This document shows positions 35,276 to 63,210 of a stretch of 64,000 bases of DNA, one piece after another. The position numbers and the translations under genes are program-made. Below the pieces are notes generated by a model, which saw nothing but the letters and a program-made list of their open reading frames with translations, made no database searches and had not been told where the DNA came from. The stretch is taken from assembly GCA_030374765.1 (NCBI GenBank), contig JARGXX010000075.1, positions 1,054,001 to 1,118,000 on the forward strand, in the 5' to 3' direction. The number at the start of each line of letters is the position of its first letter. The stretch's first letter is position 1. This DNA is from Agarophyton chilense (taxonomy: Eukaryota; Rhodophyta; Florideophyceae; Gracilariales; Gracilariaceae).

Positions 35276-35689
35276 TGTTGGTAAGGAAGGGTACAATACG
35301 AACACCGGAGGTTGTTTGTTCCAGGCTTTTCTTGGGATACGCTTGTGCATTCCTACAAAGTTAGCAATCCAGTTGGCAACTCTTGCCGAAGTATTGGTTG
35401 ATTGCTTTGTTCGGACCTTACACAGAAATTCTTTACCGAACAAGCTTGGGGACTGCCACGTCGCTCTCTCTCTCTCGAGCTCTGAAAGGTCGGTGAATAA
35501 TCATTTTATTTGATTTAAGGATTTTTGGAGCTCTTGTGCAGATTCTCTAAAAAAGACGCATGTACATTATTTCGCACCGTAATTTGGTCCACAACTTGCC
35601 TATTCTTCGTAACTACGTTCGGTCTCGTTCTTGGCATCATTTCTACTTGAATAAGCTTCTCTTCAAAAGAAAAGCGCTTAGAAATTCTG

Positions 35690-38356: not shown

Positions 38357-38448
38357 GTTGCTGAATTGCTGCGAAGGCTCGGAGCGTGGCCGTTGCACAC
38401 TCTATCTTCACGGCTTTAGTCAGGTGTCGGAGGTTTCATCGCGCTACG

Positions 38449-39205: not shown

Positions 39206-40509
39206 TAAAGTCTGTTTCAAAATCATATCCCTCGCGCAAATTTTCCAAAAATCGACGTTTTGGCTACAGTACAACTAACAAAATCAGTGTGAAAAAATTT
39301 TCAAGTAAAAAAACTGTTTCAAAATCATAACCTTTATTGCATCCTTTTTATTCTAACGCGAGTTCAGTAGTTTATTTTTGCTCCTCTAGCCTGTATAACA
39401 CTTATACAACGCTTTGGCATTGATTCTATAAAAGGATTGATAGCATTACAGTCAATCTTTTCCCAGCAATCTTTGATACAATTTTTCAAATCAAAAACTG
39501 TATCAAACTGCCTTCCTTGCCCATAAACCATTCGGGCCAACATTCCCCAAATGTTTTCGATAGGGTTGAGGTCAGGAGAGCGCGCAGGCCATTCCATAAC
39601 CGACATATTTAGACTATTGAACCACTGTTTCATAGAATTAGACTTATGCACAGGTGCATTATCTTGCTGGAAAATGAATTCTTCTCCGTGCATACAGTAT
39701 GAAAAAGGTAAAAGATAGTTTTCTAGAACCTCAGCATACTTCTCAGAGTTCATTGTAGTTTCAACAAAAGCCATATCAGTTGCTCCTTTCGTGGAGATTC
39801 CAGCCCAAACCATTACTGATGCGCCTCCTGAATGCCTAGTCACAAATTCCTTCTTTTCTTTTCGTAGATCATGCCAATAAAATTTATAGCAATCTGGACC
39901 ATCAAGGTTAAACTTTTTTTCGTCGGAAAAGATAACATTATTCCATTCCGTTTTCCAATAAGCCTTTTGAGCACACCATTCAACTCGATTTTTCTTGTGA
40001 TTATCTTTTAAAAAAAAAGTTTTCCTCATTTTTGTGTACTTGAACAAATTTTGACGGTTGACTTCACGCCATATTGTAGATCGTGATAGAGGCAAATTTA
40101 GATTTTTGACAATTTTCCCGCAAGATGAAGTGTTGCGGCATAGTTCTCGCTTAATTCCACGCTTATCGGCCGGGGATAGTGCCGTTGGACGGCCGGTTGA
40201 ACGCTTTGTTCCGTATGCAGCGGGGTTTTTGATGAAGTTGCTGATTGTTTTTGGGCTGCGCTTGAGTTTTCGGGCTATATCTGCTGGAATCATACCCTGA
40301 CCTACTAATTCCATGATTTCCAGCTGTTCAGAGCGTGTGAGAGGTGCGCCACGAGCCATAATTGAGCGAATGATTGTATAAAGGATATACTTTTGAAACA
40401 GTGTTATTGACTTAGTGGTTTTTATTTGTTGTGAAATGTGCTCTACAGTACGTGAAATGCCTTTTTGGCGCAGTTTTTGTAAAGGGATATGTTTTTGAAA
40501 CGCACTGTA
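39206..40509 (-). mobile_element. Tc1/mariner element, apparently complete, with IR/DR ends
   Basis: TA dinucleotides at 39206-39207 and 40508-40509 flank a roughly 1300-bp element. Outer inverted repeats share CTGTTTCAAAA/CGTTTCAAAA with ATATCCCT (39208-39232 and 40483-40507). Inner copies of the same motif lie at about 39311-39334 and 40381-40404, so each end has two direct repeats, the IR/DR layout known from some Tc1 elements. One intact transposase frame lies inside. A degenerate relative lies at 2481-3744. Confidence 0.8.
39364..40359 (-). CDS. Tc1/mariner transposase (DD34E)
   Basis: 331 residues with no stop or frameshift. The N-terminus has a paired-type helix-turn-helix: LTRSEQLEIMELVGQGMIP with KLKRSPKTISNFIKN, a GRPTALS hook, and a second HTH (CGKIVKNLNLPLSRSTIWREV). 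The catalytic core has FSDEKKFNLDGPD (first Asp), FIFQQDNAPVHKS (second Asp), and then DLNPIENIWG with the third acidic residue 34 residues on. The enzyme cuts at the inverted repeats and inserts at TA. The frame extends 58 codons upstream to 40533, but the ATG at 40359 (MARGAPLT) begins the DNA-binding domain and lies inside the inner repeat, so it is the likely start. It is potentially active. Confidence 0.9.
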   Translation of the reverse strand: MARGAPLTRSEQLEIMELVGQGMIPADIARKLKRSPKTISNFIKNPAAYGTKRSTGRPTALSPADKRGIKRELCRNTSSCGKIVKNLNLPLSRSTIWREVNRQNLFKYTKMRKTFFLKDNHKKNRVEWCAQKAYWKTEWNNVIFSDEKKFNLDGPDCYKFYWHDLRKEKKEFVTRHSGGASVMVWAGISTKGATDMAFVETTMNSEKYAEVLENYLLPFSYCMHGEEFIFQQDNAPVHKSNSMKQWFNSLNMSVMEWPARSPDLNPIENIWGMLARMVYGQGRQFDTVFDLKNCIKDCWEKIDCNAINPFIESMPKRCISVIQARGAKINY

Positions 40510-40574
40510 TACATAGTAAGTCTTATAGAACAATGCGCAGCTATCTGTAATAGTGTCTACACGCCCGGATAATT

Positions 40575-42463: not shown

Positions 42464-44561
42464 GACACAGATCGCATGAAGGTGTAAATCGCAGAGGCGA
42501 AGCGTTTCAAGATGCTCCGCCTGGAAAGGCAGCTGCTTCTACTCTCTCAACGAAATCGGCGTTGGGTGCCGTTGGAGAAGGTGAGGCACTCCTGCGGTGT
42601 GGCGGTCTCTCTCTCGCTTGTGCTCTTTATTACCCTCTTCCACACTCCTTCATTCTATTTCGACATGAATATCGCGGAGGGCGAGGAGAAAGGGTCAAGT
42701 ACGAACCGAAGTCCCGCAGAAGGAGCCATAGGCTCCTTCTGCTGGACGAGTGACGCTGCACGGAGCAAGAGCCATGGCGGCACGCCGCTGCCTCTGCCAC
42801 GAGAGAGGATTCCCGCTGCTCGCGAGGCGACTTCGTTGCCGCGGCACGGACAGGTCGGATTGTGTCGACAATCACTTGGCTTTGGGTCGGTATTGGCGTA
42901 TATTGGCGAAGGTAGAAGGACATGACCTTCACAAGCTCGACCCGCCCGAGACCATGCACAGCGACGCGAGTGAAGCGGGCTACGGTGGAACCGTGGAGTT
43001 CGACGAAAAAGAAGGGTCACAGGCTTTGTGGGAGTGTCGGGGTTTCTGGATGGTAGAGGATCGCGCGCAGAGCATCACGTTGCGGGAACTGTAAGCAATA
43101 CAGATTCAATTGCAGTGGCACTTCACGGACTATGTCTCCCAGCCGAGCGTACGTAGATCGCTCCTTCACGAATATAATCAGGCGGCAGTCTATGTCTTCA
43201 AAGCCATGGTATCAGCCTCGTGGCCAATGATGGCGGAGCTTCGACGTCTGAGAGCCATGGCGGCCGCGCTGATTGTAACTTTAGAGGTTCGTTGGATCGC
43301 TTCCGCCGTGAACCGGTTCGCCGACGCAACGTCTCGGGCGTGGAACCTGGGAGACGCATGAGCTATGGACAGCTTCTTGCGCTCCATCCACCGCGAATAC
43401 CACCTCGACCACAAAGTGTTCCGAGACTGGCTGGTGGGGGAAACGCTAGTTGCGCGGAGGAAGTACCTTGCCACTCAGATGGAGAAGAACTAAGGCGACG
43501 GAAAGCGCGGCTGTGGAACGCCCTGTTCGACTTTCTCCCACTAGTGGTAGGGAAGATCGAGGCAGAGAAAGGTCGTGGAGTGGTGTTGGCTCCCTACTGG
43601 CCATTGCAAGCATGGTTCGCGGGCTTACGTGGCCTGGCATCCCACATAGAGGGCCTTCGCTTCTCGTAGAACAATCTTCCGTCACTTCACGCCGTCGGAA
43701 CGCAGAATGGGGAGTAGAGGTGGTCAGGATCAGATAGCTGCGCTGCGGACTAGTGGAATTCGAGACGCAGTGATTTCATGAACCGGGACGGGGGGAATCA
43801 CTGGAGGAGCTGGAGCGGCAGCGCATTGGTTGGTGAATCATGGTTGGGCGGCGCAGACGTTGAAAAACCGAAGCAGTCAAATTAAGAAGTGGATGCTGTT
43901 CTGCGATGAGGATGGACGAGACCCCCTGCCGGCTACTGTAGGAGATGTGGCGGCATATCTGGGATACCTCTACCTCGAAGGACGAATCGGGCCAAACTCT
44001 GTGCGACAATATGTAAGCGCCGTGCCCCGGTTTCATGAGACGCAGTGTTTCACTGCCCCTACCCGTACCTCTCTTGTCTACGCCATGTTTTCCGCTTACA
44101 TCAATCTCACGGACAAGGATCGACCTCATACCCCGAAACGCCTTGGTCTGAGCGCTGAAATAATGCATCACGTCACACTGGCGGGCCTGTCTTCTGAACA
44201 GATGCTGGAAATCTGCACATGTGCGGCATCGGTCTTTTATTTCATTCTCCAGCGTCGCGCAGTGTCAGTCGAGTATGATCTACAAAGTGATGTGAGCAAA
44301 ACGGACCCTGAGATGACCTTTGTGGTCACACATCGAAAGAAAACGTCCAGGCCCCATCCATAACGCCTTAGATACCCACAGAATCCCCTACAAACTGGAC
44401 GTCTGAACCTGATGCGGAAATAAAATTTCGTTTGCCCGGTTTGCAGCGGGTTTATGGTCACAAGAGCATAGCGAACTCTTGGTTCGACTAATATCGGCGA
44501 TGCATTGTACCAAGCACTATAATTGTCTTCGTGACTGCACCGGACGGATTTTTCTATGCTT
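42464..44561 (+). pseudogene. DIRS-like retroelement, distal half: RT end, RNase H and tyrosine recombinase
   Basis: In shifting frames it encodes the end of a DIRS-type RT (RFKMLRLERQLLLLSQRNRRWVPLEKVRH), then RNase H with MHSDASEAGYGGTVEF and DRAQSITLREL, then YVFKAMVSASW and RWIASAVNRFADATSRAWN, and from 43830 a tyrosine recombinase. The proximal half of the same element lies at 56347-57600 on the minus strand. DIRS elements lack integrase and insert circular cDNA using the recombinase. Stops and frameshifts occur throughout, so it is inactive. It is trapped between inverted LTR copies. Confidence 0.75.
43830..44363 (+). pseudogene. Tyrosine recombinase fragment of the DIRS-like element
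   Basis: A 177-codon frame begins with a SAM-like N-terminal domain (AAQTLKNRSSQIKKWMLFCDEDG, VGDVAAYLGYLYLEGRIGPNSVRQYVSAV) and continues into the catalytic domain, where the first catalytic Arg is probably in LQRRAVSVEYDL. The H-x-x-R and Tyr boxes are not identifiable before or after the stop, so it is truncated or frameshifted. Confidence 0.6.
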
Positions 44562-45484
44562 TGTAGAGCAACGCCCAGTTAGGGGATACTTGAAGATGCA
44601 ACTCATAGAATGAGGGTTGAACCCTCCGAGGGTTATGACTATGATCCCCTCTAAGGTGTGCTGAGGTGGCACTGTTTTCTGGTTAGAGTTCGCCTATGAC
44701 GTGAAGATTCGGATGGCCCATGGTTGTATTGGCCCCGTGATACACGTGGCTTAATTTTGGCACCGATTTTCGGATATTTGTTAGAACGTTGGATTTTTGG
44801 GCCCTGACAGTGGGATCTCCACGTGTATGGCCCTGAGCAGGTGTGCACTGCTGTAATTAGTAGAGTTTAGTTAGTGGGCCCTACTTAGGGAGACGAGATC
44901 TGACAGTCCGAAGCTCAGAGTAAATGGTAACCAAGGTTGGTCTTCGATACCTTTAGAGGTTCTTCGTCGCCATCGTTTCGGCCTTACAACCCGGAACGGG
45001 CTCTGGTTAGCAACGCCTGCGTAGGGACACGACTCCACTTGGAGAGTGCCCACGTTTGGGTTCCGTGCAACCACCCCCTTGGGACCGCTCAGACGACCTG
45101 CGTGCACGATACCCCGTGGGGGTTCTGCTTACTTGTTGCGTGCTTTTTGTGTTTCCTTTCGAGGACAGGTTTTCGCCCCTGTATTGGGTTTCTTTTGTTG
45201 TTTCGCCCCTTTTCTCGTTCTCGGGTCCGGTGCCTGTTAGTGCCCGACCCTCGCCCCGTTTTTCCTCTTCGCCGGATTTTCCCCCATTCTTTGGGATACC
45301 CATACCCATTCCCGACCCAACGGTTTCTACCCCTCACCTCCGTCGGTACTTCCGGAATCCCCCGTGGGAGTTACACCCCACACTACGGGTGGAACGGAGG
45401 GCTCTGTCTCTGAGTCTGCCTCCCCCAGGGAGCAAGGCTTCGAACACCTTGAGAGCACTTCCCGTCTCCGGGTTTTGCTCCACA
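44562..45484 (+). repeat. 5' LTR of element A
   Basis: 923 bp, TGTAGAGCAACG...GCTCCACA. It differs from the 3' LTR by scattered substitutions and a 7-bp indel near 44855. It should hold promoter and polyadenylation signals; no clear TATA box is seen. Confidence 0.92.
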
Positions 45485-45711: not shown

Positions 45712-47742
45712 ATGTCGCAGCCTACCCGTGGTTACAGGACTGGATCGAACCGTCAAGCGAATTCAGTGCCCCCGGCCCCGCCTAGGTCGAGGAGCTCAAT
45801 TCCCGAAGATCGGAACGATTCCGGTATCGATCCGGACACTCGGGGAGCACCCTCAGTGGTTTCAGGTCCTCGAGAGGTCGTGGCTGTGGGCCCAGCTCCA
45901 GTGGTGGAGACCCCCTCAGCAGCACCCCGAAGTCGGGCCGACCCTGAATTACAGCGCCTGGAGACTCGAATCGATATCGCCAACGCGGCTCACGTCGAGC
46001 TCTTTCAGGATGTTACTACCCTCCGCCGCAAGGTGGAGGACGCCCAGGTGCGGGGAGTCGCCGATGACCTTGGTACCCTGAGGAGGGATGTGAACTCCCT
46101 TTTGGAAAGCTTTGGTACCCCTCGGGTCTTTGTCCAGGAGTACCGGAGCCTCGTGGAGGAACACCGCGTGCAAGCGGAACGCTTCCGAGCTCGGCTGGAC
46201 AGCCTCGAGGCCATTATCCGTATGGACGGAGACATAGAAGCCTCGAAGGATAAACCCGACGTTTCGGAAGACGAAGAACACCGCTCCGCTAAACGGGACC
46301 GCCACAAGTCCAAGAAGAGGGTTCACCTCCAAGAGGATTTATCGGATTCCGATCACAATCGCTCGTCATCGAGTTCGTCCTCCGAATCTTCGGATAGTGA
46401 AGATGGACGCCGGTCATCCCGGGCGACTCGGTCGAAGGCTACCTACACCTCTCAAGGGGCAATCCGTACCCGGAAGAAGGGTAGGAAACACCTTGGATTA
46501 AGGGAGCTGAAGCCGACGAATCCTCTCTATCGGAAGCTGCTATCGTATTGCTATTACCGGTTGGATAACCCTTCGGGAGATCGAACATCCCGCGGAACGG
46601 GTAAGGTCAAGGACTACATCAAAAGGCTGAGCATCACCCTACAGAAGAGGGAGTTCACAGGAACAGACCCAATTCTGGTGCTCGATTTCCTTGCGAGGTT
46701 CGTCCAGGAGGCTGACATCCTCGGTATGAGTGAAGCGCAAGCGTATCTTGCATTACCCTATTTCTTAAAGGGGATGGCTGAAGACCAGTTCAACTCCGTC
46801 CGTGGATTATCCCGAGCCTCGGAAGGGGGAGTCACGTGCTGGCCCGAAGCGGTGCAGTACCTCTTGAGGTCATACGCTACTGGAAATGCGATTCAGGAAG
46901 CAATCCTTGCATTAAGGGATATGCGGCAGAAGCCGATGGAAACCGAAACGGTGTATTCAACTCGCTTGAATAAAGCGTTTCACCGATGCGGGAATGTATT
47001 CCCCGCCTACGAGAGATGCACCATGTTTGTGGATGGTTTGGACCCCTCGATAAGGGCATTGGTTGCCCGACATCGGGAAGAGAAGCGCAAGCTGACCTAC
47101 TTGGAACTGGTTCAGTACGCCCAGGCTGAGGGGGATACTCTCCGCGCCCGGTAGAACCGAAAGAGTCGGCCGACACGTGCACTCCTCGCCGATGGAGGTA
47201 ACTCGTCTTTGTCACTCGCAGGAGGCCCTGCCCCTGTGGGGGTCAATGATAACATTCACTTCATGGGAAGTAACCCCGAATCTATGGGTACGTCTGAGTT
47301 GCCGTCGACATCCGCTCCGACTACGGATGAAGACCCTGCGCTCTATACCCAAGGACGGAGGGTGCCAGCCGCATCGCTACCTTTTGCGAATACCGCTGCT
47401 CGGTTCTCTCGCCCCGGATGGAGAGATACAGCACCACGTCGCGTGGATCCACGTCCACAACCGAACCCGGCAGAGCTGATTTGCTATTTGTGTTACCTCC
47501 GTGGTCACAAAGCACCAGACTGCACATTTTCCCTGCGGGAGGGTTCACGTATTATCGCTCAGTACGAGGCTCTGACCCCTGAGGAGAAAGCTCGAGTCCC
47601 GAGTAGGTCCTATGAGGAACAAAGGATACTCCGGGCTCACCTTTCTGACAGGGATACAGAACTTGTACCCGCGAACGGGGAACAACCGGTCCCCTTCGAG
47701 GAAGCTGCACCGAATTCGGGGGGGTCCGCTTCGAAAAACTAA
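45712..47742 (+). pseudogene. Gag of element A, one in-frame stop
   Basis: From the ATG at 45712 one frame runs to 47742, interrupted only by a TAG at 47152-47154. The N-terminus is Pro/Ser-rich, with a coiled-coil middle (residues about 80-170) and a basic Ser-rich segment. The retrotransposon Gag fold follows (LDFLARFVQEADILGMSEAQAYLALPYFLKGMAEDQF, GGVTCWPEAVQYLLRSYAT, ETVYSTRLNKAF). After the stop comes a zinc knuckle C-X2-C-X4-H-X4-C (CYLCYLRGHKAPDC). Gag builds the particle and packages RNA. Element B has an uninterrupted homologue, which shows the TAG is a nonsense mutation. Pol follows 2 bp downstream in another frame. Confidence 0.9.
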
Positions 47743-47744
47743 AC

Positions 47745-50700
47745 TTGGGAGTATCACCTGCGGGAGGGGCGTCTTCTAAGCCGGAGTTGAAGACGCTCGA
47801 GGCGCTCCAGCTTCGCTCCCCAGCTGTGACTATCCTTTCAAGGAGAACGGCTGACACCGACGTTAACTCGGGATACTTTAGTGTCCTCCGTCACCCGTGG
47901 ATACGGTCCCGTAATCCCCGTATTCCGGATCGAGTTATGGTAATGGCCTAGTGGAATTATAAAGTATTCGCCGACTTCGGCCTGTCCAAACAGTTTATGG
48001 TTCGTCAAATATCGGTCCTGGATACAGGAGCCGCTCCTAACTTAATTCATGTTGAATTGTTACCCCCGCTGCTCCGGGTTCAAGTTCGTACCGGTCCACG
48101 TTTGGATATCGCCGATGCGAACAACAACCCGCTACGGACACTGGATACAATTTCCCTCATGGTGAGTTTAGGCTCCTATCTCGTTCAACTAGAGTTTATT
48201 GTATGCAAGTCACTTGCAGCACCAGTCATACTGGGTTGTGACTTTTGCGACCGCTTCGTGGAAGCTATCCGTCCTCGGAATAGAACTGTGGAACTCGAAG
48301 ACGGGTCTACGATCCCAATCGTTCGTAAACCCTTACAGGGAGCAGCGCGAACACGCGTTCCTCTCCCTGTCGCGCAGGAATCTTTGAAGAAGGACCCTGT
48401 GTCTACACGGGTAAAGGTTGCGAAGTCAGTGGCTATCCCGCCAGAAACCCAGGTTTGGGTCACAGTTGTTACCAAACAAATTGGTGTGCATGTGGTACAA
48501 CCGAACCCGTCTCTGTATACGCGGCGTCAACTCGCCCTTGCGAATGGGGTTGTCTCCGTGGAACCAGATAAACCTTTCAAGGTTTTGGTAGCCAACTTTG
48601 GGAAGACAACGCAGCATTTGGTCAAACACCAGATCCTGGGTTCTGTTCTTCCACACCCGCATGCGGTCGTACCTACAAAGATCTCTATCGCAGAGGTCCT
48701 TGGTGTGGCGGACCCTAAGGAGGGGGAGGACACTGCCGAAATCGCGGAAGACGGTGAGCATACGACTGCAGCTCCACACGCTGAACACTTTAAACCTCAG
48801 GAGGTTACGGCCCCTATCACAGGAGCAGACCAGACGGATCATGTTCAGGAATTGGAGAAATGGGATCTCAACCATGTACCCGCATCTCATCGGGAGAAGC
48901 TGAGGCACATGCTTCGTGAATTTACCCCCATGTGGGATGGTTCCCTTGGAACTATTGGGATTACAGAACACTGCATCGACTTGTTACCGAACACTCGGCC
49001 TATTGCCCAACATCCTTACAGGGCTGGACCGAAAGCTCGGGAAGAGGAGATATCTCAGGTGGAGAAGATGCTTAAAGCGGGCGTAATTGAACCTGCCCAG
49101 TCCGCTTGGGCCTCACCCGTGGTGTTAGTTCCGAAACCGGATAGATCGTGGCGTTTCTGCATCGATTACAGACGCCTGAACGAGGTAACCATTAAGGATG
49201 TGTACCCGATCCCTCGGATGGACGAATACATCGACTCCCTTGGGAGCGCTACTATTTTCTCTACCCTCGACGCCAATTCGGGCTACTGGCAAGTCCCTAT
49301 TAGGGAGGAAGATCGAAACAAAACGGCTTTCGTGTGTCATCAAGGACTTTTCCGATTCCGGAGGATGCCTTTTGGGTTGACAAATGCCCCCGCAACGTTT
49401 CAACGGGCGATAGACATTCTGTTGGCTCGCTTCAAGTGGAGGACGTGTCTAGTGTATTTAGACGACATTATTGTCTTCTCCAACAGCCTGGATGACCATC
49501 TCGAACACGTCAGGGACGTAATGAAGATACTCCGCGACGCGGGAATCACCTTGAAACTCAAGAAGTGCGAGTTTTTCACCGATTCTGTTAAGTATCTGGG
49601 TCATATCATCCGTCCCGGACAGCTTTCAATCGATGAAGTACGAGTGAAATCCTTGAAGGAAGCAAAACACCCGAAAACTCAAACGGAGTTGCGATCCTTC
49701 TTAGGTCTGTGTAACGAGTATCGCCGATTCGTCCCGAACTTTGCGGATATTGCCACCCCCCTCAACAGGCTCCTGACGAAGGGACAACCAGTTAAACTGG
49801 AATCTTTTGGCGACGCGGAAGCGTCTGCCTTCACGGCACTGGTGAATGCCGTAACATCACCGCCAATCTTGGCTCTACCCAATCCTGGGCTCCCTTACGA
49901 AGTGGACACCGATGCTAGTGCAAACCAAGTAGGGTGTGCACTGTTCCAATCCTCTGAGGATAGTGAACGTCACCCTATTGGGTACTTCTCACGTTCCCTG
50001 AATGTCCATGAAAGAACTACTCGGTCTCCGAGAAAGAATGTTTAGCCGTTGTGTGGGCCTTAGCTACACTTCGCCCCTATCTGATGGGTACTCGTTTCAA
50101 AGACCATACGGACCACGCATGCTTGCGTTGGCTCCTGGAGATCCCCGAACCCTCTGGCCGCCTTATGCGCTGGCGTCTCCGACTGTCGGAATTCTACTTT
50201 GAGATCCTGTACAAGAAAGGGAAGCTGAACACTCAGGCTGATGCACTATCCCGCTTGGGAACCACAGCGGAAACGGAACCCTACGAGGACGATGACATCC
50301 CATGTTTTATGGTATCGGACCTCGAGCGAGGAGCTCAACCGCTGACGGATGATGTTTGTGACGATATACTCGTCAACGAGAGTCTGGATTCGCCTACTGG
50401 CTCTTTTATACCTATCTCCCCAGAGGAGATGATACGCGAGCAACAGCTCGACCCATTCTGTACACGGATTCGGGCTCGCCTCACTGGAGGATTTCAGTTA
50501 CCTTTCGAGGACGACGATCAGGGTTACCTAATCAGGACCGTTGGACCTCGCCCGAGGATAATGGTGCCGCACACCCTACAACAGAGGGTATTACACCTCA
50601 CTCACTATGTGAAGATTGGCGCCCACCCCGGGGGAAGAAAACTGTACATCACGTTGAGAAGGGACTTCTACTGGCTGGCAATGGCATTCGATTGTTACGC

Positions 50701-51832
50701 CGTCAGACGGGCCTGCGCCAATTGCGCCAAGAATGACGTCAAACTTGGGAAGCACTCTAAGAAGTTGACGCTTTTCCCGGCACGGGCTCCACTCGAATTC
50801 GTGGCCATAGACATCCTAGGGGAGGTTATCAGGACGCCCCGAGGTCATCGGTATCTGCTTGTCATTTCTGACAGATTCTCTAAGCTAACGAGAACTGTGC
50901 CGCTGAAGCGGATCACCGCCGCTACCGTCGCGCAAGCGTTCGTGACCCATTGGGGCTTCGTATATGGACCGCCGGTGCAGTTGTTATCCGACAACGGAGG
51001 GCAATTCGCATCAAAGTTCTTTCAGGATGTATGTCGAATCCTTGATGTAAAGAATTTATTTGTTACTACGTATCACCCTCAGGGGAATGGCCAGGTGGAG
51101 AGGTTTAACCGCACGATACTCAACGCTTTGAGATCGTATGTTGCGGATCACCCCAAAAATTGGGACTTATACACAGACGCTATCACGTATGCATAGAACA
51201 CCCAGGTACATCGGGTTACATCGCTATCCCCATTCGAACTGGTACTGTCGAGGACACCGCCGCCGGTCGCCATCGAGGCTCAACCGACGCTGTCGACGTA
51301 CCCGTCACCTGGATTGTACCGAGAAGCCTGGAAGGAGTGGCTTGCGAAGATGGTGCCGATAGCCCGGAAAGCAATGGAAAAAGCTCAACGCGCCTACAAG
51401 AAGGACTTTGACAATCGGGTTCGCAAACCTCTACCTCAGGTGGAGCCCGCCGACTTCGTCTTCCTTCGAAAGGAATAATACCATCCTGAAAAGGAACGTA
51501 GGCACAAGCTTACGCCAATTGTGGACGGACCCTATCGTGTGGTTTCTGTAGACCCGGACACGGTGGTATTGGATATCGCTAACCGCCACGAACGGATCTC
51601 CAGGGACCGCATCACACGAGCGCCCAACCCAAATGTGGAAGTGGTGTCGGCACCAACGCCCTCCACAGGGGATGATTCAACGGAAGTTAACCCGTCAGGC
51701 GGAGATTCGAACACCCGCCCCGTTATACTTCCGCACCCGGAACATGGTTTAACCGACCTACCGGAAACTTCGGATACTCCTGAACCTGAGCCAGCTCCCT
51801 CAAGGGCCCAGTCAACGAACTCTTACAGATAG
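47745..51832 (+). pseudogene. Pol of element A: protease, RT, RNase H, integrase
   Basis: Domains in order: protease LDTGAAPNLI (48021), RT with SAWASPVVLVPKPD, CIDYRRLNEV, LDANSGYWQ and catalytic LVYLDDIIVF (49453-49480), RNase H with VDTDASANQVGCALFQ and the SEKECLAVVWA block, integrase zinc finger (HLTHYVKIGAHPGG...CANCAK), and integrase core with AIDILGE, LLSDNGGQF and QGNGQVERFN giving D, D and E. Lesions are TAG at 47949, a one-base frameshift near 50012, TAG at 51194 and TAA near 51475. All motifs are otherwise intact, so it died recently. Pol copies the RNA to DNA and inserts it. Confidence 0.92.
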
Positions 51833-52800: not shown

Positions 52801-53091
52801 GTGTGTCTAGTCCCTACGTTGACACCCTCAAGGGAACTAGAGCGTTCCAAGATGGAAGAGAAGCCCGAACAGGGAAAAGTGCACCCGCAGGAATTCGTTA
52901 TCGATCGCATCGTGCGTCACATCTACACCCCAGAGGGAGAAGTTCGCTACCAAGTCCGATGGTACGGATTCTCGCCTGATGAGGATACAGTGGAACCCAT
53001 TGAGCACCTTCCGAGGTCTAAGGTTTTATCCTTTCACCGACGCGCTCGGGTAACCTTGCCTCCAAATCTGGATCGTGCCCAAGTCGGGTAA
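52801..53091 (+). pseudogene. Chromodomain tail of element A pol
   Basis: FVIDRIVRHIYTPEGEVRYQVRWYGFSPDEDTVEPIEHLPRS is a chromodomain, with the aromatic YQVRWYGF strand and the DTVEP turn. It lies in a different frame from integrase, after a roughly 950-bp Pro/Ser/Thr-rich decayed linker (51.8-52.8 kb). In chromoviruses this tail follows integrase and targets insertion to modified histones. The first aromatic-cage position appears as Phe in EFVIDRI. It is separated from pol by stops and frameshifts. Confidence 0.85.
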
Positions 53092-53430: not shown

Positions 53431-53624
53431 CAAATATCAGAAGTTTACTATTGTCGCCAAGCTATGGACTCTACAATTGCCCTAAGGCGGAACTATGGAA
53501 AGCCCGAGGAGGGACCCGCCCCACCGTTGGGATTCTTACCCTGATGGTACGCCGAGGCGAAAGCCAACATCTGGCTCACATCCGTCATACCCGGGGGAAT
53601 CGGAATGCCCGCGTTCACGAGGCC

Positions 53625-55220
53625 TTATCGCACACTATCCGCTTGCGGAGTGGCAACCGGCGCCTGCGCAAGGGTGTTCACACCCCACCCGGGAGGAGCA
53701 GATGGACCGCCACCGGATGCATTCGCCGCCGCAGCTGAGGACGTTCCCACTGGTTGGAAGGGTGCAGATGGCTCCACAGGGAGTACTCCACTAGGAGCTG
53801 GCATGTCGTTATCCAACGCTGGATCGTCCAGGTCTACTGGAGGCTCGTGCTCGTAATCGTCGGTATAAATGAACCCCGTCGGGTGTCTCACCGGCATCGG
53901 TCGAGGCGAGGCCATCAGTGCCCGTGCTTGCGCCGCGCTGATGCGAACCCCTTCGAAGGGATTGTAATAGACCCAGTTACCGGAGCCCGGATCGTACCGG
54001 CCAGGAGACTTGTCTCGCGCGGATCCTTCCCCAGCGGGCTGATTTTCCACTAGAACTCGATCCCATTGGGTGTTGTCGATCACGTCCAAGATTGGATACA
54101 GGTCCTGCACGTTGCTGACCGAACCCAACGCTGGGACAAGGTCGATCTGACGCATGAAGGTCCGTAGCATCGGAGGAATATACCAGACACGGAAATGGTC
54201 ATGGGCATCCCAGAGGAGGTGCGCCGCTACGCGGGCTGCCCACTCGGCTGCAACGAGGGCCTAGTATCCCGAGTTAGGGTCGTGCATCAAACGAGACCCG
54301 ATATAGTAGATGCACGGGGGCAGTTCAGCAAAGCACCCTCGGGGGATCTCGACCTTACTCTACCAAGCTAGAAGGGGCACGAATCGCCCAACCTTCGCCG
54401 TGTTACGGATACGCTCCAGTTCCACGTGAGGATATGGGACAAGGAACCCGAAACGGGAGCGCGAGCGGTGCTCGAAGCGCACGCGTCAATCGAACCCATA
54501 CTGGGTAAACTGCCGTTGAAGGTACCTGAATTCAGCCCGAATGATGGAACGACTTCTTTGGAGCATATCTTCTCGCAGAGAAAAACCCGGTCCGCGGAAC
54601 TTGGCTTCGGGAAAGGCTGCCAGGTTATCCCCGTAGGAGACCTCACCGTACGTGCGGTAATAGGCGACATCGAACCCGTACTCCGGGGGAACCAGACGGT
54701 CAAAGCGTGATCTCTCCAATCTCTGGTAGGCCAGAGCCGCCATCGCTGCGCACGCCTTGTCCAAAGACTCCCCGCGACCGCGGTATAGATACTGAGGCTC
54801 TATGGCTACCCGCGCCCTCCAATCGGGAGAACGTACAACCTCGACAGGTAGGCCACCCGGCAATAAGCCGTCCTCCACGTAGGAGTCGATGAGCTCATCG
54901 TCGCGAACCGCTGTCGGATGGAACCACGGAGCGCGGGAATATATCACCGGATCGGTAAAAGGACTCCACCTTCGAAAGGATTCGTTTGAGATCCAACCTC
55001 TGGAGTGTGCTACCAAGGTCATAGAATGAGCGGAGTTCCACGCCACCGCGTTAATGTCCAAATCCTCCTGAAAATGGCGGTTGCTCGCCGAGGCGGAAGG
55101 TTCGGTACCTGACGGAGCCGCATCCAAACCGGAGAAATATCCACCCTGCTGGGGAGTTTCGTTGTCCGCCGGCGCTGAGGCTGACGGCCCCGAGAGTGGG
55201 TTGATGACGTATGGGTTCAT
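53625..55220 (-). pseudogene. Antisense ORF of element A (about 530 codons), three in-frame stops
   Basis: On the strand opposite gag-pol, one frame runs from the ATG at 55220 to the stop at 53625 with no frameshift, broken only by TGA at 54486, TAG at 54360 and TAG at 54261. The sequence between the stops keeps a normal protein composition. It contains a Ser/Ala/Pro/Gly-rich N-terminus, a charged aromatic core (SREDMLQRSRSI-like helix, AAEWAARVAAHLLWDAHDH) and a Pro/Gly-rich end with an NWVYYNPFEG motif. The frame is open upstream of the ATG to a stop near 55416 (GTG at 55388). A TATA-like GCTATATATA lies at 55361-55370, about 140 bp upstream. I do not recognise the family. Antisense genes in this position are known from some plant gypsy elements. 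It was probably a real gene, now decayed. Confidence 0.6.
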
Positions 55221-55360
55221 TCCCTTGAGAGGGTTGGTTGAGACTGCTGTTGCGAGAAGTTGCTTATCGCCGAAAGTCGGAGGAGTAGAAGAAAGTTGTA
55301 CCGATGTGCCGGTTTTGTGGCGATCCTCAGAAGTGGTGAAGGACCCTAGTGGGAGAGCAG

Positions 55361-55370
55361 TATATATAGC
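55361..55370 (-). promoter_or_regulatory. TATA-like box of the antisense ORF
   Basis: GCTATATATA on the minus strand about 140 bp upstream of the antisense ATG at 55220, inside element A and just before the 3' polypurine tract. Its position suits an internal antisense promoter; function is inferred. Confidence 0.45.
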
Positions 55371-55417
55371 GACCGGAACGCGAGACACCCGCGGCTCGGA
55401 ATGTTCTTCCTCGTCTC

Positions 55418-55430
55418 AAGGAGGGGGAGA
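55418..55430 (+). other. Polypurine tract of element A
   Basis: Thirteen purines (AAGGAGGGGGAGA) end exactly at the TG of the 3' LTR, the expected place for plus-strand priming. Confidence 0.85.
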
Positions 55431-56346
55431 TGTAGAGCAACGCCCAATTAGGGGATACTTGAAGATGCAACTCATAGAATGAGGATTGAACCCTCCGAGG
55501 GTTATGAATATGATCCCCTCTAAGAGGTGCTGAGGTGGCACTGTTTTTCGGTTAGAATTCGCCGATGAAGTGAAAATTCGGATGGCCCATGGTTGGATTG
55601 GCCCCGTGATACACGTGGCTTAATTTTGGCACCGATTTTCGGATATTTGTTCGAACGTTGGATTTTTGGGCCCTGACAATGGGATCGCCACGTGTATGGC
55701 CCTGAGCAGGTGTGCACTACTGTAGAGTTTAGTTAGTGGGCCCTACTTAGGGAGGCGAGATCTGACAGTCCGAAGCTCAAAGTAAATGGTAACCAAGGTT
55801 GGTCTTCGATACCTTTAGAGGTTCTTCGTCGCCATCGTTTCGGCCTTACAACCCGGAACGGGCTCTGGTTAGCAACGCCTGCGTAGGGACACGATTCCGC
55901 TTGGAGAGTGCCCACGTTTGGGTTCCGTGCAACCACCCCCTTGGGACCGTTCAGACGACCTGCGTGCACGATACCCCGTGGGGGTTCTGCTTACTTGTTG
56001 CGTGCTTTTTGTGTTTCCTTTCGAGGACAGGTTTTCGCCCCTGTATTGGGTTTCTTTTGTTGTTTCGCCCCTTTTCTGGTTCTCGGGTCCGGTGCCTGTT
56101 AGTGCCCGACCCTCGCCCCGTTTTTCCTCTTCGCCGGATTTTCCCCCATTCTTTGGGATACCCATACCCATTCCCGACCCAACGGTTTCTACCCCTCACC
56201 TCCATCGGTACTGCCGGAATCCCCCGTGGGAATTACACCCCACACTACGGGTGGAACGGAGGGCTCTATCTCTGAGTCTGCCTCCCCCAGGGAGCAAGGC
56301 TTCGAACACCTTGAGAGCACTTCCCGTCGCCGGGTTTTGCTCCACA
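55431..56346 (+). repeat. 3' LTR of element A
   Basis: 916 bp, same ends as the 5' LTR, with scattered substitutions and a 7-bp deletion. It is followed by GTGTT and the DIRS-like RT sequence. Confidence 0.92.
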
Positions 56347-57600
56347 GTGTTCAGGAGCCCACCGAGGTTTTCCAGCCGCCACTTTGCCTCCCCAAAACCT
56401 TTCGAAGGATTTCGGGTTATACCCAGCCGACTAAAAAGCGCGTCCAATCTTGTGACCGCGCGCCTGCAGTCTTTTTGCGTAAACGCCCGACCTCTCGGTG
56501 AGGGTGCAACCCGGAAGTCGTCAATGTACGGCAGCATGCGAAAGCCCATTTGCTCCCTCATGTACTCTACGAGGGGATGGAGCAGGTTAATAACCCACCA
56601 AACCGAACACCCACATCCGAAGGGGAGCGCGATACACCGGTAGACCCGTCCGGCGTATTGGAAGAGAAACCAGTCGCACATACTTGGATGTACATGAAAA
56701 TGAAGATAGCCACTCCTGAGTTCCCATGACCTGAGGGTGACCTTTCCCTGCTGCGCCAACGCGAACGACGTCAGCGTCTCCATTTTCACGCCCCCCTTCG
56801 GCCATTGCTTGCTCTGACGCTTGAAGTTGACCATAAAGCGTCCCTTTGGACCCTTGCTCTCTTCTTGCCGTACAGTGGAGGCTGACGACACCGGATTTTT
56901 CTGGTTCGCTCTCTTCTTGACATAGTCTGCTCTAACCTCTTCGTACACCCCCTATACACACCCTCGTTGTAAATCCTCTGACCCAACCATCGTGTCCTCT
57001 TTCGATTGGGAAACATTCTCGAGTATCTCTCTGGATGTGAAAGAAACTGTCGGTGGCTCCAGGATCCCGTATCTTACAGCCCTCACGAGATACTCGCCAG
57101 CTCTGAGCTTCGGTGGTCGGCGTTCAAAGCTGTTTCTCTCCACAGGGGCAGTACCCCCGTGCTTTCGCGCTCCTTCCACTTCCTGTTCTCCATTACTGAT
57201 CCCTAGCAGCCTCAGTCGGGCCGCTGCTTCCATAAATGTTACTAGAGAGGCTTGAGAGACGCTCCAAGCGTGCTTTCGCGAGTATTTTTGCGGCTTTCAC
57301 CTCCATCTTGGAGATGTAAGCGACCCGTGCATACCTGTAGGACTCCGAAAAGATGGCATCATGCCCTTGTTCTACGAGGAAAGACATTTGTCTTGCAACT
57401 TCCACACCCTGCTCGTTGATGTCTCCAAAAAACTGTGCTCTCATGGGCAATACTTCCAATGTCGCTTTCCGGGCGACCTCGGCTACAGCCATTCTTCTTG
57501 TTAAATCTTCTATAGTACTTTCATGGATTCTAGTCACATCTAATGATGTGAGACTAAGTTCCGTCCAAACGCCTTCTGCGTTCAGTGTAGTATTCTACTA
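56347..57600 (-). pseudogene. DIRS-like retroelement, proximal half: Gag-like region and reverse transcriptase
   Basis: Read on the minus strand from about 57600: a helical Gag-like frame (TRRMAVAEVARKATLEVL, ARQMSFLVEQGHDAIF), then an RT with one stop near 56949. RT blocks are GRFMVNFK, WELRSGYLHFHVHPSMCDWFLFQYAG, RCIALPFGCGCSVWWV and catalytic MLPYIDDFRVAPSP. These are typical of DIRS/Ngaro RTs. The frame stops at the LTR (RLENLGGLLNT) and resumes at 42464 once element A and one target copy are removed. The 5' end is cut near element B's LTR. Confidence 0.8.
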
Positions 57601-58309: not shown

Positions 58310-58508
58310 CGAACCACTGCGTTCAGCTGAACTGAAAAATTCGTTTCTAGAACGTGGAATCGATATCGATACTTGGAAGAAGTGGAATCACTACAGTTAT
58401 TGTTTATCGAACCACCTCCGGCAATTGCAGAATTAATCGTGGTTGAACACGTGGTCGAGAAGTCGAAGACACCATTTGGTTCGCACCTGGACTCAGGTTT
58501 GGTCTAGG

Positions 58509-60662
58509 ATGCCGAAGACCCGAAGCCAGTCGAGTACTGGTCGCCCCGGTCCTGCGAAACCACCCCCGAAACCGAGGCTCGCCTCATCTGTTGAAGCCGG
58601 AGAGCGGCTGTATCGTCAAGCGATGTCGCGCTCACGCTCGGTGAATGATGAACGAGATCTCTCTGATGTACCGGCCCCTGTGGCAGCGGCAGTCACGCCC
58701 ACCACAGAAGCCGTAGTTGACCCTGAGGTCGTCGGACCTCAAGAAGAAGATGATTTGCGCAGGGAAGTGCGTCGTCTCAAGTCTGAGTCAAGCGCTTCGC
58801 GTGTGCGCGTGGTTGCGTTGGAATCGCAGATTGCTGCTCTTATCGCTGATGTCGAACACTTAAGCAGTGCGCATCAAGCACTCGCTCGTCAAGACGATGG
58901 GAAGCAGGTCTTTGCATCAGTGAAAACACTACGTGAGGATTTGAACCATCTACTGGAGAGGTACGGGAATACGCCCGATGCGCTACCCGGCTTAACCGTG
59001 GATGTAGAGGAAGTCCTCACTCGAGTTAACCCTCGTGTAGAACGCCTGGAGGCGGCAGTTCATGCGCAGACTGCTGCTAAACCAGTCGTGCTGGAAGAGG
59101 AAGGAGCTCCTTTGAAGGAAGCTCGTTCGAAGAAGTCGAAGTCTCGACGTAAGAAGCGGAAGTCCGCACGTGATTCAAGTGATGAATCGTCAAGTACGGA
59201 GGGTTTAAGTTCCAGTACTGATGATTTTAATGATTCAGATACGTCAGATGACCACGACAGTGATGATGGTCATCGAAGGGCCCGATCTCGGAAGAAGAAC
59301 ACGTCTTCGTGGTTAATGAGAAAAAAGGGCTCACCTTACAGAAGATTGAAGGTGCTCCCGTGCACGAATCCGCTTTATCGGAAGGTCCTGAATTACAGGT
59401 ACTACCGTATGAAGGTGAAGAGCAAGAAGCGCTCAGGACGCGAAACTGCGAAGGTGAAGGATCACATCAAACGACTGAAGATCGGCCTTAATGATTTAAC
59501 ATTTGATGGGAAACCCCCCATTCTCGTTATCGAGTTTCTCACTCGATTCGTTGCCGAAGCAGACACTCTAGAGATGAGTGAACCACAGGCATTGGTGTCT
59601 TTACCACACTTCCTGAAGGGTTTTGCTTTAGAGCAATATCGTTCCGTATGTGGATCATTGACAGCCGATGAAGGCGGCGTTACCTCATGGCCAGAGGCGG
59701 TGCAGTATTTGCTGCGGAGTTACGCGACTTCAAACGCGATACGTCAAGCGATCCTGGACCTAAGGGATGTTACCCAAAAGCCTGAGGAGGGCGAAGCTGA
59801 GTACAGCTCAAGGCTGAACAAAGCTTCAGTCCGCCGTGGAAACGTCCACTCGACGGAGGACAAGATTACCTTGTACATCGACGGGCTGGACCCGAGAATC
59901 AAGTCGTTGGTAGCTCGATATCGAGAGAAGCATGGAAGAGTCTCCTTTTTGGAGTTAGTTCAGTTTGCCAAAGCTGAAGGAGACGTGGCCAGAGCGCTTG
60001 GTAGCCCCCGTCGTTCAGTGGCTTTTGGAACCTCAATGGGTAAGGGGAAGATCTCCGCCAGAGTTAATCAGCGCAGCAAACTGGTACATCTGGAATCTCC
60101 AGTGCACTCACGAAATTCGTCGTTGGCACCAAAAGGGAGTGACTCGCATGAGGAGGCGGTCCATTTAATAAAATATACGGACTCTTCTGTACCTACAGTG
60201 GATCTCCCACACTCGGAGTCTCAGGATGAGGAAGCCCTAATGGCTATGGAGGGCCGTCGCCCTATGTACCGTCCCTACACGGTGCCACCACAAGGAGGTT
60301 TTAAGAACGGGAAACTCGGATGGGTGGATACTCGCACGGCTTACCGTTCAGAACCTATGTTGACCAACCGTCGTGACGGTTTGATTTGTTATTCATGTTA
60401 TGGAAAACACCATTTGCGTGCAGAATGCACGCTTCCTGCAAAGGATCTGAGTCGTATCATGACGAATTATGAAGCACTCTCAGAAGAGGAAAGGAGCCGC
60501 GTACCGGCGGGCATGTATTGGAAAGCCAAAAGCTGGTTTTCTCAGACACCAATGCGCCGGACGGACAAGCCGGTTGCTCAGAATGCTGAATTGTTACAAC
60601 CCGGAACCCCGGTAGGAAGAGGCGCCTTTGAGGCGAATAAGCCGGTGCAACCGGAAAACTAA
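58509..60662 (+). CDS. Gag of element B, intact
   Basis: 717 residues with no stop or frameshift. It has a Pro/Arg-rich N-terminus, a coiled-coil region (about 70-190), an acidic and basic Ser-rich linker (KSKSRRKKRKSARD, DSSDESSSTEG), a retrotransposon Gag domain (VIEFLTRFVAEADTLEMSEPQALVSLPHFLKGFALEQY, GGVTSWPEAVQYLLRSYAT) and a zinc knuckle C-X2-C-X4-H-X4-C (CYSCYGKHHLRAEC, about 60386). The frame is open upstream, but the first ATG is at 58509 (MPKTRSQS). It ends in TAA at 60660; pol follows in another frame. Confidence 0.9.
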   Translation: MPKTRSQSSTGRPGPAKPPPKPRLASSVEAGERLYRQAMSRSRSVNDERDLSDVPAPVAAAVTPTTEAVVDPEVVGPQEEDDLRREVRRLKSESSASRVRVVALESQIAALIADVEHLSSAHQALARQDDGKQVFASVKTLREDLNHLLERYGNTPDALPGLTVDVEEVLTRVNPRVERLEAAVHAQTAAKPVVLEEEGAPLKEARSKKSKSRRKKRKSARDSSDESSSTEGLSSSTDDFNDSDTSDDHDSDDGHRRARSRKKNTSSWLMRKKGSPYRRLKVLPCTNPLYRKVLNYRYYRMKVKSKKRSGRETAKVKDHIKRLKIGLNDLTFDGKPPILVIEFLTRFVAEADTLEMSEPQALVSLPHFLKGFALEQYRSVCGSLTADEGGVTSWPEAVQYLLRSYATSNAIRQAILDLRDVTQKPEEGEAEYSSRLNKASVRRGNVHSTEDKITLYIDGLDPRIKSLVARYREKHGRVSFLELVQFAKAEGDVARALGSPRRSVAFGTSMGKGKISARVNQRSKLVHLESPVHSRNSSLAPKGSDSHEEAVHLIKYTDSSVPTVDLPHSESQDEEALMAMEGRRPMYRPYTVPPQGGFKNGKLGWVDTRTAYRSEPMLTNRRDGLICYSCYGKHHLRAECTLPAKDLSRIMTNYEALSEEERSRVPAGMYWKAKSWFSQTPMRRTDKPVAQNAELLQPGTPVGRGAFEANKPVQPEN

Positions 60663-60678
60663 GTGAGAGAGCCCCTAG

Positions 60679-63210
60679 AGGTCGGCACTAGTCGATCTCG
60701 TAGTACTGACCAGGGAGAGCTCGCCTCCCTGCTCCCGCGCTTGGAAGCCCAAGATTCGCTTGAGGCCTCAGAAATTTCCGCCGAATGGAATCAATCCGCG
60801 GGACGGAAAGCGAGTACAGTTTGACTGTGAGTTACATCGTCCTTGGAGAAGTTATACTTGTTCGTCGAAACGGGAAAGTTACCTCACGGTAGTGTCTAAA
60901 AGAAACTATAAGGTCTATGCCGACATCGGCTCTGACAGGAATCTGTCATCTCTTGGATTGACTATCCTGGACACAGGTGCTGGTCCGACCTTTATACGGG
61001 AATCGGAGCTCGCTCCTGTTGACTTGGAACGTATTCGATACGGTCCTTTACGGGACATCCGGGATACCAACAAAAACGCTGTGAAGACACTGGGAACAGT
61101 TCGAATCGTGGTGCGTTTGGGACGCTTTCTAGTACTAGTCGACTTCATCGTCTGCAAGACGTTAGCTGCACCAGTGGTACTGGGATGTGATTATTGCGAC
61201 AGGTTTTTTGAAGCCATTCGCCCGCGAAGAAAACTAGTGGAACTAGATGATGGATCAATGGTACCAATTGTTCGCAAGCCAATGCGTCGTTGCTCTGAAG
61301 CACCTCCACTTCCACCATCTATGGAATACGGGAAATCCCGAGGACGTGTCTCGCCGAGGATTCGAGTAGCGAAGAGTGCCATGCTGAAGGCGCAAACCCA
61401 AACTTGGGTACAAGTAAGAACAGAACGACACGGACTCGTGGTAATTCAACCGAATACTCGGATGTACGAATCCCGTGGATTGCTAGTCGCTAACGGCATT
61501 GTTCAGGTTGATCCTGGTAGCCCCTTTTGGATACTAGTGAGTAACCTCACCGATAACGATTATCAGATACCGAATAATCAGGTCGTTGCAACAGCTTTGC
61601 CTCATCCCACAGTGGTGGTCCCTACTCATATTTCTACTACAGAAGTATTGGGATTAACCCATGTCGGTGATCCAGACGAAGAACTGCAAACTCCGTCTGG
61701 AGATAAATTGAAAACTGCAAAGGATCCAGAGAGCCTGGTCGATGAGCTAGACTTAGCACATGTGTCGGAACACTACAGAACGAAGATCAGGTCTATGCTG
61801 AAGAAGTATAAACCCATGTGGAGTGGAAAAATAGGAGAGATCTCCGCTACGGAACACCACATTGATTTGGTCCCAGAGTCACGACCCATCTCCCAACCAC
61901 CCTACAGAGCGGGACCGCGAACTCGCCAAATCGAGGAGGAGAATGTCAGCAAAATGCTGGAAGAAGGAGTAATGGAAGCAGCTCAATCTGCTTGGGCCTC
62001 ACCAGTGGTGCTGGTTCCGAAACCTGGTGGTTCTTTACGAGTCTGCATCGATTATCGAAAACTGAACGCAGTTACAGTTCGGGATACATACCCGTTGCCT
62101 CAAATGGACGAATGTATTGACAGCTTAGGAGAAGCGAACGTGTTTACCACGTTGGACGCCAACTCTGGCTATTGGCAGGTGCCTGTAGCGGAAGAAGACC
62201 AAGGCCAAACCGCATTTGCGTGTCACGCCGGTCTCTACCGTTTCAAAAAGATGCCCTTTGGCTTAACGAATGAACCGGCTGTATTCCAGCGTACTCTGGA
62301 CATCTTGCTCTCAAGATACAAGTGGAAGACTTGTTTAGTCTATTTGGACGATGTGATTATCTTTTCCCAGGATGTAGAAAGCCATTTACGGCATGTCGAG
62401 GAGATCCTCAAAGCACTACAGAGCGCAGGTATCACCTTGAAGTTCAAGAAATGCGAATGGTTCGCTGGCACCGTCCGGTACTTAGGACACGTGATCAAAC
62501 CGGGACAGCTTGCCATTCAAGAGGCACAGACAGCGGCTCTCCGCGAAGTACAACCTCCGTCGACACAGAAGCAATTCCGTTCTTTCTTCGGCTTGTGCAA
62601 CTTCTATCGACGATTCGTGCCGCGATACTCGCATATAGCGGCACCGCTCAACGCAAAGCTGCCTAAAGGACAACCAGTACAGCTGGAACAAGTAAGACAA
62701 GCTGAAGTGGAAGCGTTCAAAACGCTGAATACAAAGATTATTACAGTCCCAGTCTTGGCGCTGCCCATCCCCAACCTGCCATACTCAGTGGATACCGACT
62801 CTAGCGAGTACCAAGTAGGGTGTGCCCTTTTTCAAACACACCCTGATGGTGAACGCAAACCCATTGGTTTCTGGTCAAGATCGCTGAACGGAGCTGAGAA
62901 GAAGTATTCAGTTTCAGAAAAGGAATGCCTTGCAGTCGTTTGGGCTCCAACCACATTGCGACCGTATCTCCAAGGAGAACGTTTTACCGTCAACACGGAT
63001 CATTCGTCTCTACGATGGTTACTGTCCATTATAGACCCGTCTTGTCGTCTCACACGATGGCGCTTACGACTTTCTGAATTCGATTTCGGAGTAAAGTATA
63101 AGAAGGGATTGGCCAATTTTTAAGCTGACGCGCTATCGCGACTCAAATCACTGGGCGAAACCCAAGGCAAAATCGATGAAGAGATACCTTGCTTCTACAT
63201 GGAGACCCAT
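60679..63210 (+). pseudogene. Pol of element B: protease, RT, RNase H
   Basis: The frame opens at 60679, one frame on from gag, with no useful ATG, so a frameshift or readthrough would be needed. It carries protease ILDTGAGPTFI, RT (SAWASPVVLVPKPGG, CIDYRKLNAV, LDANSGYWQV, catalytic LVYLDDVIIF at 62337-62366) and RNase H (VDTDSSEYQVGCALFQ, SEKECLAVVWA, NTDHSSLRWLL). A TAA at 63121 replaces the Gln of the conserved QADALSRL motif seen in element A, and a frameshift follows near 63210. RT residues are intact. No integrase core follows. Confidence 0.9.

What the first reader, a model, noticed from the sequence alone, without database searches (positions are those of the whole stretch)
53625..55388. 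Long antisense gene inside a chromovirus, between chromodomain and 3' LTR
Seen: one minus-strand frame of 532 codons from an ATG (588 counting open sequence to a GTG), with exactly three nonsense codons and no frameshift over 1.6-1.76 kb, plus a TATA-like box upstream. The sense frames here are closed. Known: a few plant gypsy lineages carry antisense ORFs near the 3' LTR. Inference: the element carried an extra gene under selection until recently. The protein resembles no family I know.
Basis: partly seen in the sequence, partly recalled or inferred. Interest (0 to 1): 0.78.

Follow-up and report, generated by a model that had tools for sequence, protein, structure and literature searches.

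The report
Backwards gene in algal chromoviruses
A family of jumping genes in what is very probably a red alga carries an extra gene written on the opposite strand next to one of its ends; a distant sister family keeps the same protein although the DNA no longer looks alike, so it is a real gene, but what the protein does is not known.

Summary
The minus-strand frame lies between the chromodomain and 3' LTR of a Ty3/gypsy chromovirus in an 80-Mb genome of a phycobilisome-bearing alga (most likely red). Of 71 scored full-length hits, 45 are stop-free; 0 of 1000 shuffles reach 640 codons.

The decisive evidence is between families. A second, diverged chromovirus starting in the window has the homologous antisense gene in the same place: 33% identity over 469 columns, E 1.7e-62, no blastn match, fourfold sites at chance. 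A fragment of a third family has it too. Within family 1, variation looks neutral, but so does the chromodomain, so that test has no power.

It works like the antisense accessory ORFs of Grande, RIRE2, Retand, PvRetro13 and Boty, but matches no Pfam, NCBIfam, PHROGs or PDB family. Best reading: a soluble accessory protein expressed from the 3' LTR side, probably regulatory. Coding is strongly supported; transcription and function are inferred. The structure server stayed busy.

The parts
44562..45484 (+). 5' LTR of element 1 (starts TG, ends CA)
   Evidence: 889 of 923 alignment columns identical to the 3' LTR
45712..47154 (+). gag frame of element 1, ended early here; 69 of 89 scored gag places have a 691-codon frame (stops read through and counted apart; hand count)
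   Evidence: 44% identical to gag of element 2 over 462 aligned codons
47997..51196 (+). pol (RT, RNase H, integrase) in two frames 47997-50045 and 50051-51196; interrupted
   Evidence: RVT_1 5.6e-40, RT_RNaseH_2 3.9e-17, Integrase_H2C2 5e-10, rve 4.6e-10
52801..53091 (+). chromodomain
   Evidence: PF00385 E 1.6e-8
53493..55415 (-). Antisense gene: 640-codon stop-to-stop frame in relatives; in this copy broken by four nonsense codons (54486-54488, 54360-54362, 54261-54263, 53625-53627); terminator 53493-53495
   Evidence: homologues in other families
55218..55220 (-).
55361..55368 (-). TATATATA box, exact in 36 of 45 copies; 11 nt before the ATG site at 55349 and 140 nt before ATG 55220
   Evidence: promoter function is inference
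55417..55430 (+). purine-rich tract next to the 3' LTR (putative PPT)
   Evidence: seen in the sequence
55431..56346 (+). 3' LTR of element 1; candidate site of the antisense promoter
   Evidence: promoter role is inference
58443..63123 (+). Element 2, diverged chromovirus (gag 58443-60662, pol 60760-63123). Its chromodomain (in L061 462-1184) and homologous antisense gene (L061 1456-3282, minus, in two frames) lie past the window end

Best explanation
The frame is a decayed copy of a genuine antisense accessory gene of chromoviruses in a (very probably red) alga. Shown: the gene lies between the chromodomain and the 3' LTR, reads towards pol, encodes 575 to 618 residues (by start codon chosen) without a membrane segment, and is conserved as protein between two diverged families, with a fragment in a third. 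Inferred: it is transcribed leftwards from a promoter in the 3' LTR or at its border (the first ATG is 24 nt from the LTR in family 2 and 81 nt in family 1; a TATA box stands at 55361-55368). Inferred, less surely: the protein acts in trans on expression, nuclear transport or integration of the element, as proposed for the plant antisense ORFs, and is not a capsid or envelope protein. The window copy is dead; its nonsense codons fit decay after insertion, though two of the four are shared with one or two other copies.
For: Six-by-six frame comparison of the two elements' 3' regions (stops as X): antisense-antisense E 1.7e-62, 33% over 469 columns; next best a sense pair at 8e-15; blastn nothing at 1e-3. 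Fourfold sites at chance (0.15 and 0.27 against 0.25 expected) while residues are 31% and 37% identical; in the C part dN/dS about 0.33 with dS 2.2, near saturation; in the N part dS saturated. 45 of 71 scored full-length hits stop-free, 14 of 30 DNA-ranked copies (the window included) with at least 600 open codons, 18 of 132 scored family-2 hits with 607 or more codons and no stop (hand count; at least three of these look like copies of one sequence). Third family in the flank of L022. Chance open frame excluded. Highest 19-residue Kyte-Doolittle mean 1.06, pI 5.0-6.2. No similarity to gag.
Against: Within family 1 no significant excess of synonymous variants among shared polymorphisms: p = 0.14 in 44 copies, 0.61 in 30. 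Among scored hits, stops per codon are nearly twice as frequent as in gag. No transcript, peptide or structure was available. No TATA box is obvious in family 2. The one family-2 copy held here is split into two frames. If the second ATG is the true start, the nearness of the start to the LTR loses force. The trans-acting role rests on analogy.
Confidence: 0.6

Rival explanations
1. The antisense RNA, not the protein, is what matters: it pairs with the 3' end of the genomic RNA and limits transposition by dsRNA or interference; the open frame is secondary.
For: Antisense RNA roles are discussed for such elements in PMC7264820. A transcript starting in the LTR would overlap the purine tract and the 3' part of the genomic RNA.
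Against: Between families 1 and 2 conservation is in amino acids, in one frame, with synonymous sites randomised and no blastn match left; a regulatory RNA would not keep a 600-codon frame in both.
Confidence: 0.06
2. The protein is a structural or envelope-like component (third gene, env position).
For: It sits where env sits in retroviruses; the size is suitable.
Against: Opposite orientation to gag-pol; no membrane segment by hydropathy; no Pfam or PDB relative; no similarity to gag.
Confidence: 0.1
3. The gene is a host gene (or a foreign mobile gene) captured in reverse by an ancestor of these chromoviruses. This concerns origin and is compatible with the best explanation.
For: Antisense orientation is what capture of a gene with its own promoter could leave (inference).
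Against: No relative was found in the libraries searched, but broad eukaryotic protein databases were not on hand, and a host copy among more than a hundred element copies could not be picked out.
Confidence: 0.15
4. Shadow of a sense gene: a sense protein under selection keeps the opposite frame open.
For: Sense-sense comparison gives a weaker match, E 8e-15, and one sense frame shares wobble positions with the antisense frame.
Against: Sense frames are closed (longest 203 codons over 45 copies), and the antisense match is about 47 orders of magnitude better.
Confidence: 0.02
5. Chance open frame in a stretch with few stops.
For: Stop frequency is low here (0.028 per codon in shuffles).
Against: 0 of 1000 shuffles reach 640 codons; homologous frame in another family.
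Confidence: 0.01

Closest known systems
Antisense accessory ORFs (aORF-3R) of plant and fungal LTR retrotransposons: Grande gene23, RIRE2, PvRetro13, Boty (PMC7264820)
   Same: Position between pol and 3' LTR, antisense to gag-pol, no clear protein relatives, LTR retrotransposon carrier.
   Different: Host is an alga, carriers have a chromodomain, diverged families share one protein. Sequence relation to those proteins was not tested, apart from Pfam families.
Retand-lineage antisense ORFs with TRP28 domain, PF04195 (PMC11963269)
   Different: Retand is a non-chromovirus lineage found in eudicots and Liliopsida; no PF04195 match in our proteins.
HTLV-1 HBZ and HTLV-2 APH-2 (as described in PMC7264820 and PMC11963269)
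   Same: Antisense gene at the 3' end; for HTLV an antisense promoter inside the 3' LTR is described.
   Different: Retroviral, far smaller proteins (recalled), no sequence relation shown; here antisense transcription is not shown.
Chromoviruses (Ty3/gypsy with chromodomain); the abstract of PMC3605345, seen in a search listing, says they occur even in green and red algae
   Same: gag, RT, RNase H, integrase, chromodomain, LTRs.
   Different: Large antisense gene after the chromodomain.

Membership tests
Chromovirus | LTRs, gag, RT/RNase H, integrase | tested here: met
   (gag by position and by similarity to the Pfam-matched gag of element 2)
Chromovirus | chromodomain downstream of integrase | tested here: met
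   PF00385 1.6e-8 in element 1, 8.3e-7 in element 2
Chromovirus | RT phylogeny inside the chromovirus clade | not tested
   no tree was built
Antisense aORF between pol and 3' LTR (aORF-3R) | antisense frame in that interval | tested here: met
Antisense aORF between pol and 3' LTR (aORF-3R) | present in more than one family | tested here: met
Antisense aORF between pol and 3' LTR (aORF-3R) | present in most copies of the family | tested here: inconclusive
   many copies have it, but the searches used this region as query and their lists are capped
Antisense aORF between pol and 3' LTR (aORF-3R) | transcribed antisense from its own promoter | not testable with these tools
   no RNA data; only a TATA-like box
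Retand TRP28 protein | PF04195 domain | tested here: not met
   Pfam scans, E up to 1 for stop-free relatives and family 2, E up to 0.1 for the window halves: not listed
Env-like gene | sense orientation and transmembrane segment | tested here: not met
   antisense; highest 19-residue Kyte-Doolittle mean 1.06
HBZ-like antisense regulator | antisense mRNA from the 3' LTR, nuclear protein | not testable with these tools
   first ATG 24 to 81 nt from the LTR is compatible only
Gag paralogue | profile similarity to gag of the same elements | tested here: not met
   hhalign probability 0.1, E 0.76; both profiles are shallow

The most novel reading that the evidence does not exclude
A whole lineage of algal chromoviruses carries an ancient trans-acting antisense gene of a protein family unknown elsewhere, driven from the 3' LTR like HTLV HBZ. 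That would be an HBZ-style second transcription unit evolved independently outside animals, land plants and fungi.
Probability: 0.4. Interest if true: 0.7.

Novelty: new variant of a known kind. Interest (0 to 1): 0.55.

Why it matters
Antisense accessory genes of LTR retrotransposons are reviewed mainly for land plants, with one fungal element, and their functions are called unknown (PMC7264820). A conserved antisense protein in chromoviruses of a distant algal lineage, with many uninterrupted copies in one compact genome, suggests that antisense second genes arise repeatedly in LTR elements and gives a system where transcription, location and partners could be examined. The listings of four full-text searches showed no report of such a gene in algal elements; I opened passages of only one of the listed algal papers, and the library covers only openly licensed PMC papers.

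Tried and rejected
Within-family polymorphism test. The first version with 45 copies gave p = 0.003 (counts, Fisher) but included L043, a chimeric copy whose tail does not match (444 private differences). Without it p = 0.14 over the 618-codon part, and 0.61 for the 30 DNA-ranked copies. The signal is withdrawn. Other frames gave nominal p values of similar size in either direction (for instance 0.036 in a wrong antisense frame), so nothing should be read into them.

Chromodomain control: the first run used an unsafe orientation rule and is discarded. The repeat (29 loci plus the window, L019 matching over 165 of 400 bases only) gave private N58 S12, shared N8 S4, so no selection is visible there either.

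Rejected: chance frame, sense shadow, gag paralogue, TRP28. Weak library hits not believed: Pfam E 0.045, 0.17 and 0.31, PHROGs 0.49, PDB 0.97; the PDB profile search gave nothing up to E 1. A viral-contig scan, which finds close relatives only, matched three stretches but no relative; the profile version could not be run.

No structure: structure prediction was busy, so no fold search was possible. The SSU rRNA search failed. Actin hits were used only as a look at the host. Element 1's flanks gave no matching target-site duplication by eye.

Papers: PMC7264820 read in parts 1 and 2 of 3; PMC11963269 and PMC12477816 in passages; PMC6317226 and PMC3248453 searched for 'antisense' and related terms with no occurrence; the rest only as search listings (one search listed none).

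Full report
What is there. The window is G000:C75:1054001-1118000 of a 79.8-Mb genome in 135 contigs. Phycobilisome linker domains occur on seven contigs (13 matches), and the one dynein heavy-chain domain search gave a single match. That fits a red alga without flagella; a glaucophyte is not strictly excluded. The finding lies in a Ty3/gypsy element with LTRs at 44562-45484 and 55431-56346 (889 of 923 alignment columns identical), gag, RT, RNase H, integrase and a chromodomain.

The frame. Two start codons are conserved, at 55349 (42 of 45 copies, not this one) and at 55220 (43 of 45). The TATATATA box at 55361-55368 is exact in 36 of 45. If that box is a core promoter, transcripts would start below 55349 and the second ATG would be used; this is inference.

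Copies. The N-half search scored 131 places (of 1308 first-look candidates, so a lower bound), each at 90% identity or more. With a natural 618-residue frame as query, 71 places were scored (of 1864 candidates), full length or one residue short, and 45 of them have no stop (hand count of the table). As a yardstick, 73 of 89 scored gag places of about 480 codons are stop-free (hand count). That is 18 stops in about 42,700 gag codons and 33 in about 43,900 antisense codons, nearly twice as many in the antisense frame; both lists are ranked by score and so favour well-kept copies. Among 30 copies ranked by DNA only (the window included), 14 keep at least 600 open codons; over all 45 distinct copies, 16 do.

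Selection. Within family 1 the variation is mostly private and looks neutral. In the antisense frame private variants are N336 S163 stop20 and shared variants N75 S48 stop2; Fisher p = 0.14 (44 copies, L043 dropped as chimeric, two-allele sites only). For the 30 DNA-ranked copies p = 0.61. The chromodomain shows no constraint in this test either.

Between families the answer is clear. Element 2, which starts in the window, has a pol frame 53% and a chromodomain 47% identical to those of element 1. Behind its chromodomain, just before its 3' LTR (which starts near L061 3307), it carries two minus-strand frames, L061 2386-3282 and 1456-2349, homologous to the N and C halves of the family-1 protein (E 3e-20 and 3e-44). 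All six frames against all six: antisense-antisense E 1.7e-62, 33% over 469 columns; best sense pair 8e-15; no blastn match. Codon comparison: N part 243 codons, 31% identical, fourfold sites 0.15 identical against 0.25 expected; C part 279 codons, 37% identical, fourfold 0.27 against 0.25, dN/dS about 0.33 with dS 2.2. Gag (44%), pol (56%) and chromodomain (48%) are more conserved. Of 132 scored family-2 places, 18 have 607 or more open codons and no stop (hand count). A fragment of a third family is visible where a family-1 copy sits inside another antisense frame (L022 left flank: 35% over 104 residues to family 1, E 2e-10, and 29% over 86 to family 2, E 3e-7). This one keeps short DNA matches to family 1 (42 bases at 86%, 29 at 83%), and whether its element has a chromodomain was not seen. 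The block around APWF-P-A is shared by all three.

What the protein is. No believable match in Pfam, NCBIfam, PHROGs or PDB, none among close relatives in viral contigs, none to gag. The pieces examined have pI 5.0 to 6.2 and no membrane-like segment; the family-1 protein is rich in Ala, Pro, Ser and Gly and has an arginine-rich stretch near residue 290. No structure could be run.

How it probably works. If the first ATGs are used, the start is so near the LTR (24 nt in family 2, 81 nt in family 1) that the transcript must begin in the LTR or right beside it. That resembles HTLV, for which PMC7264820 describes an antisense promoter inside the 3' LTR, and Grande gene23, described there as transcribed from its own upstream promoter. 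I think a regulatory or nuclear accessory role likeliest, by analogy only.

Known or new. [quoted passage not shown] This one differs in host, in carrier and in protein, and TRP28 was tested and not found. The listings of four searches showed no report in algal elements, within the limits of that library. I therefore call it a new variant of a known kind.

Noticed in passing
window 32517-33668 (-): Dynamitin (dynactin p50) homologue, PF04912 E 1.5e-28, the only match found in the genome. The genome also gave one dynein heavy-chain domain match, in a 4605-codon open frame (C13:592000-593025). From recall, dynein has been thought missing in several red algae, so this deserves a check. A p150 search found nothing, but its control was empty too.
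   Followed up: partly
window 43830-44360 (+) and 56199-56948 (-): Flanks of element 1: a frame with a weak phage-integrase SAM-like match (E 0.0029) on the left and an RT-like frame on the opposite strand (E 0.0011) on the right, both below Pfam's cut-offs. Element 1 may have landed in a tyrosine-recombinase retroelement with opposed genes (Kangaroo-like, recalled).
   Followed up: no
window 39367-40533 (-): Uninterrupted 389-codon Tc1/mariner-type transposase frame (DDE_3 1.5e-18).
   Followed up: no
L002 73-792, L021 72-797 and window 53605-53690: A short sense peptide (PLAEWQPAPA) encoded near the end of the antisense gene in the window recurs upstream of the chromodomain in L002 and L021, but not there in the window copy: possible template switch or local duplication.
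   Followed up: no
L043: Copy whose antisense gene switches to other sequence after about codon 434.
   Followed up: partly
L061 3307-4664: The 3' LTR of element 2 aligns to its 5' LTR in two pieces (77% and 94% identity) separated by about 690 bases absent from the 5' LTR: an insertion or a mosaic LTR.
   Followed up: no
window 36962-38398 (-) and 34403-35443 (-): A frame with a non-specific endonuclease domain just over Pfam's cut-off (PF13930, 7.1e-7) and a DUF455 protein (4.1e-74), each in one open frame.
   Followed up: no
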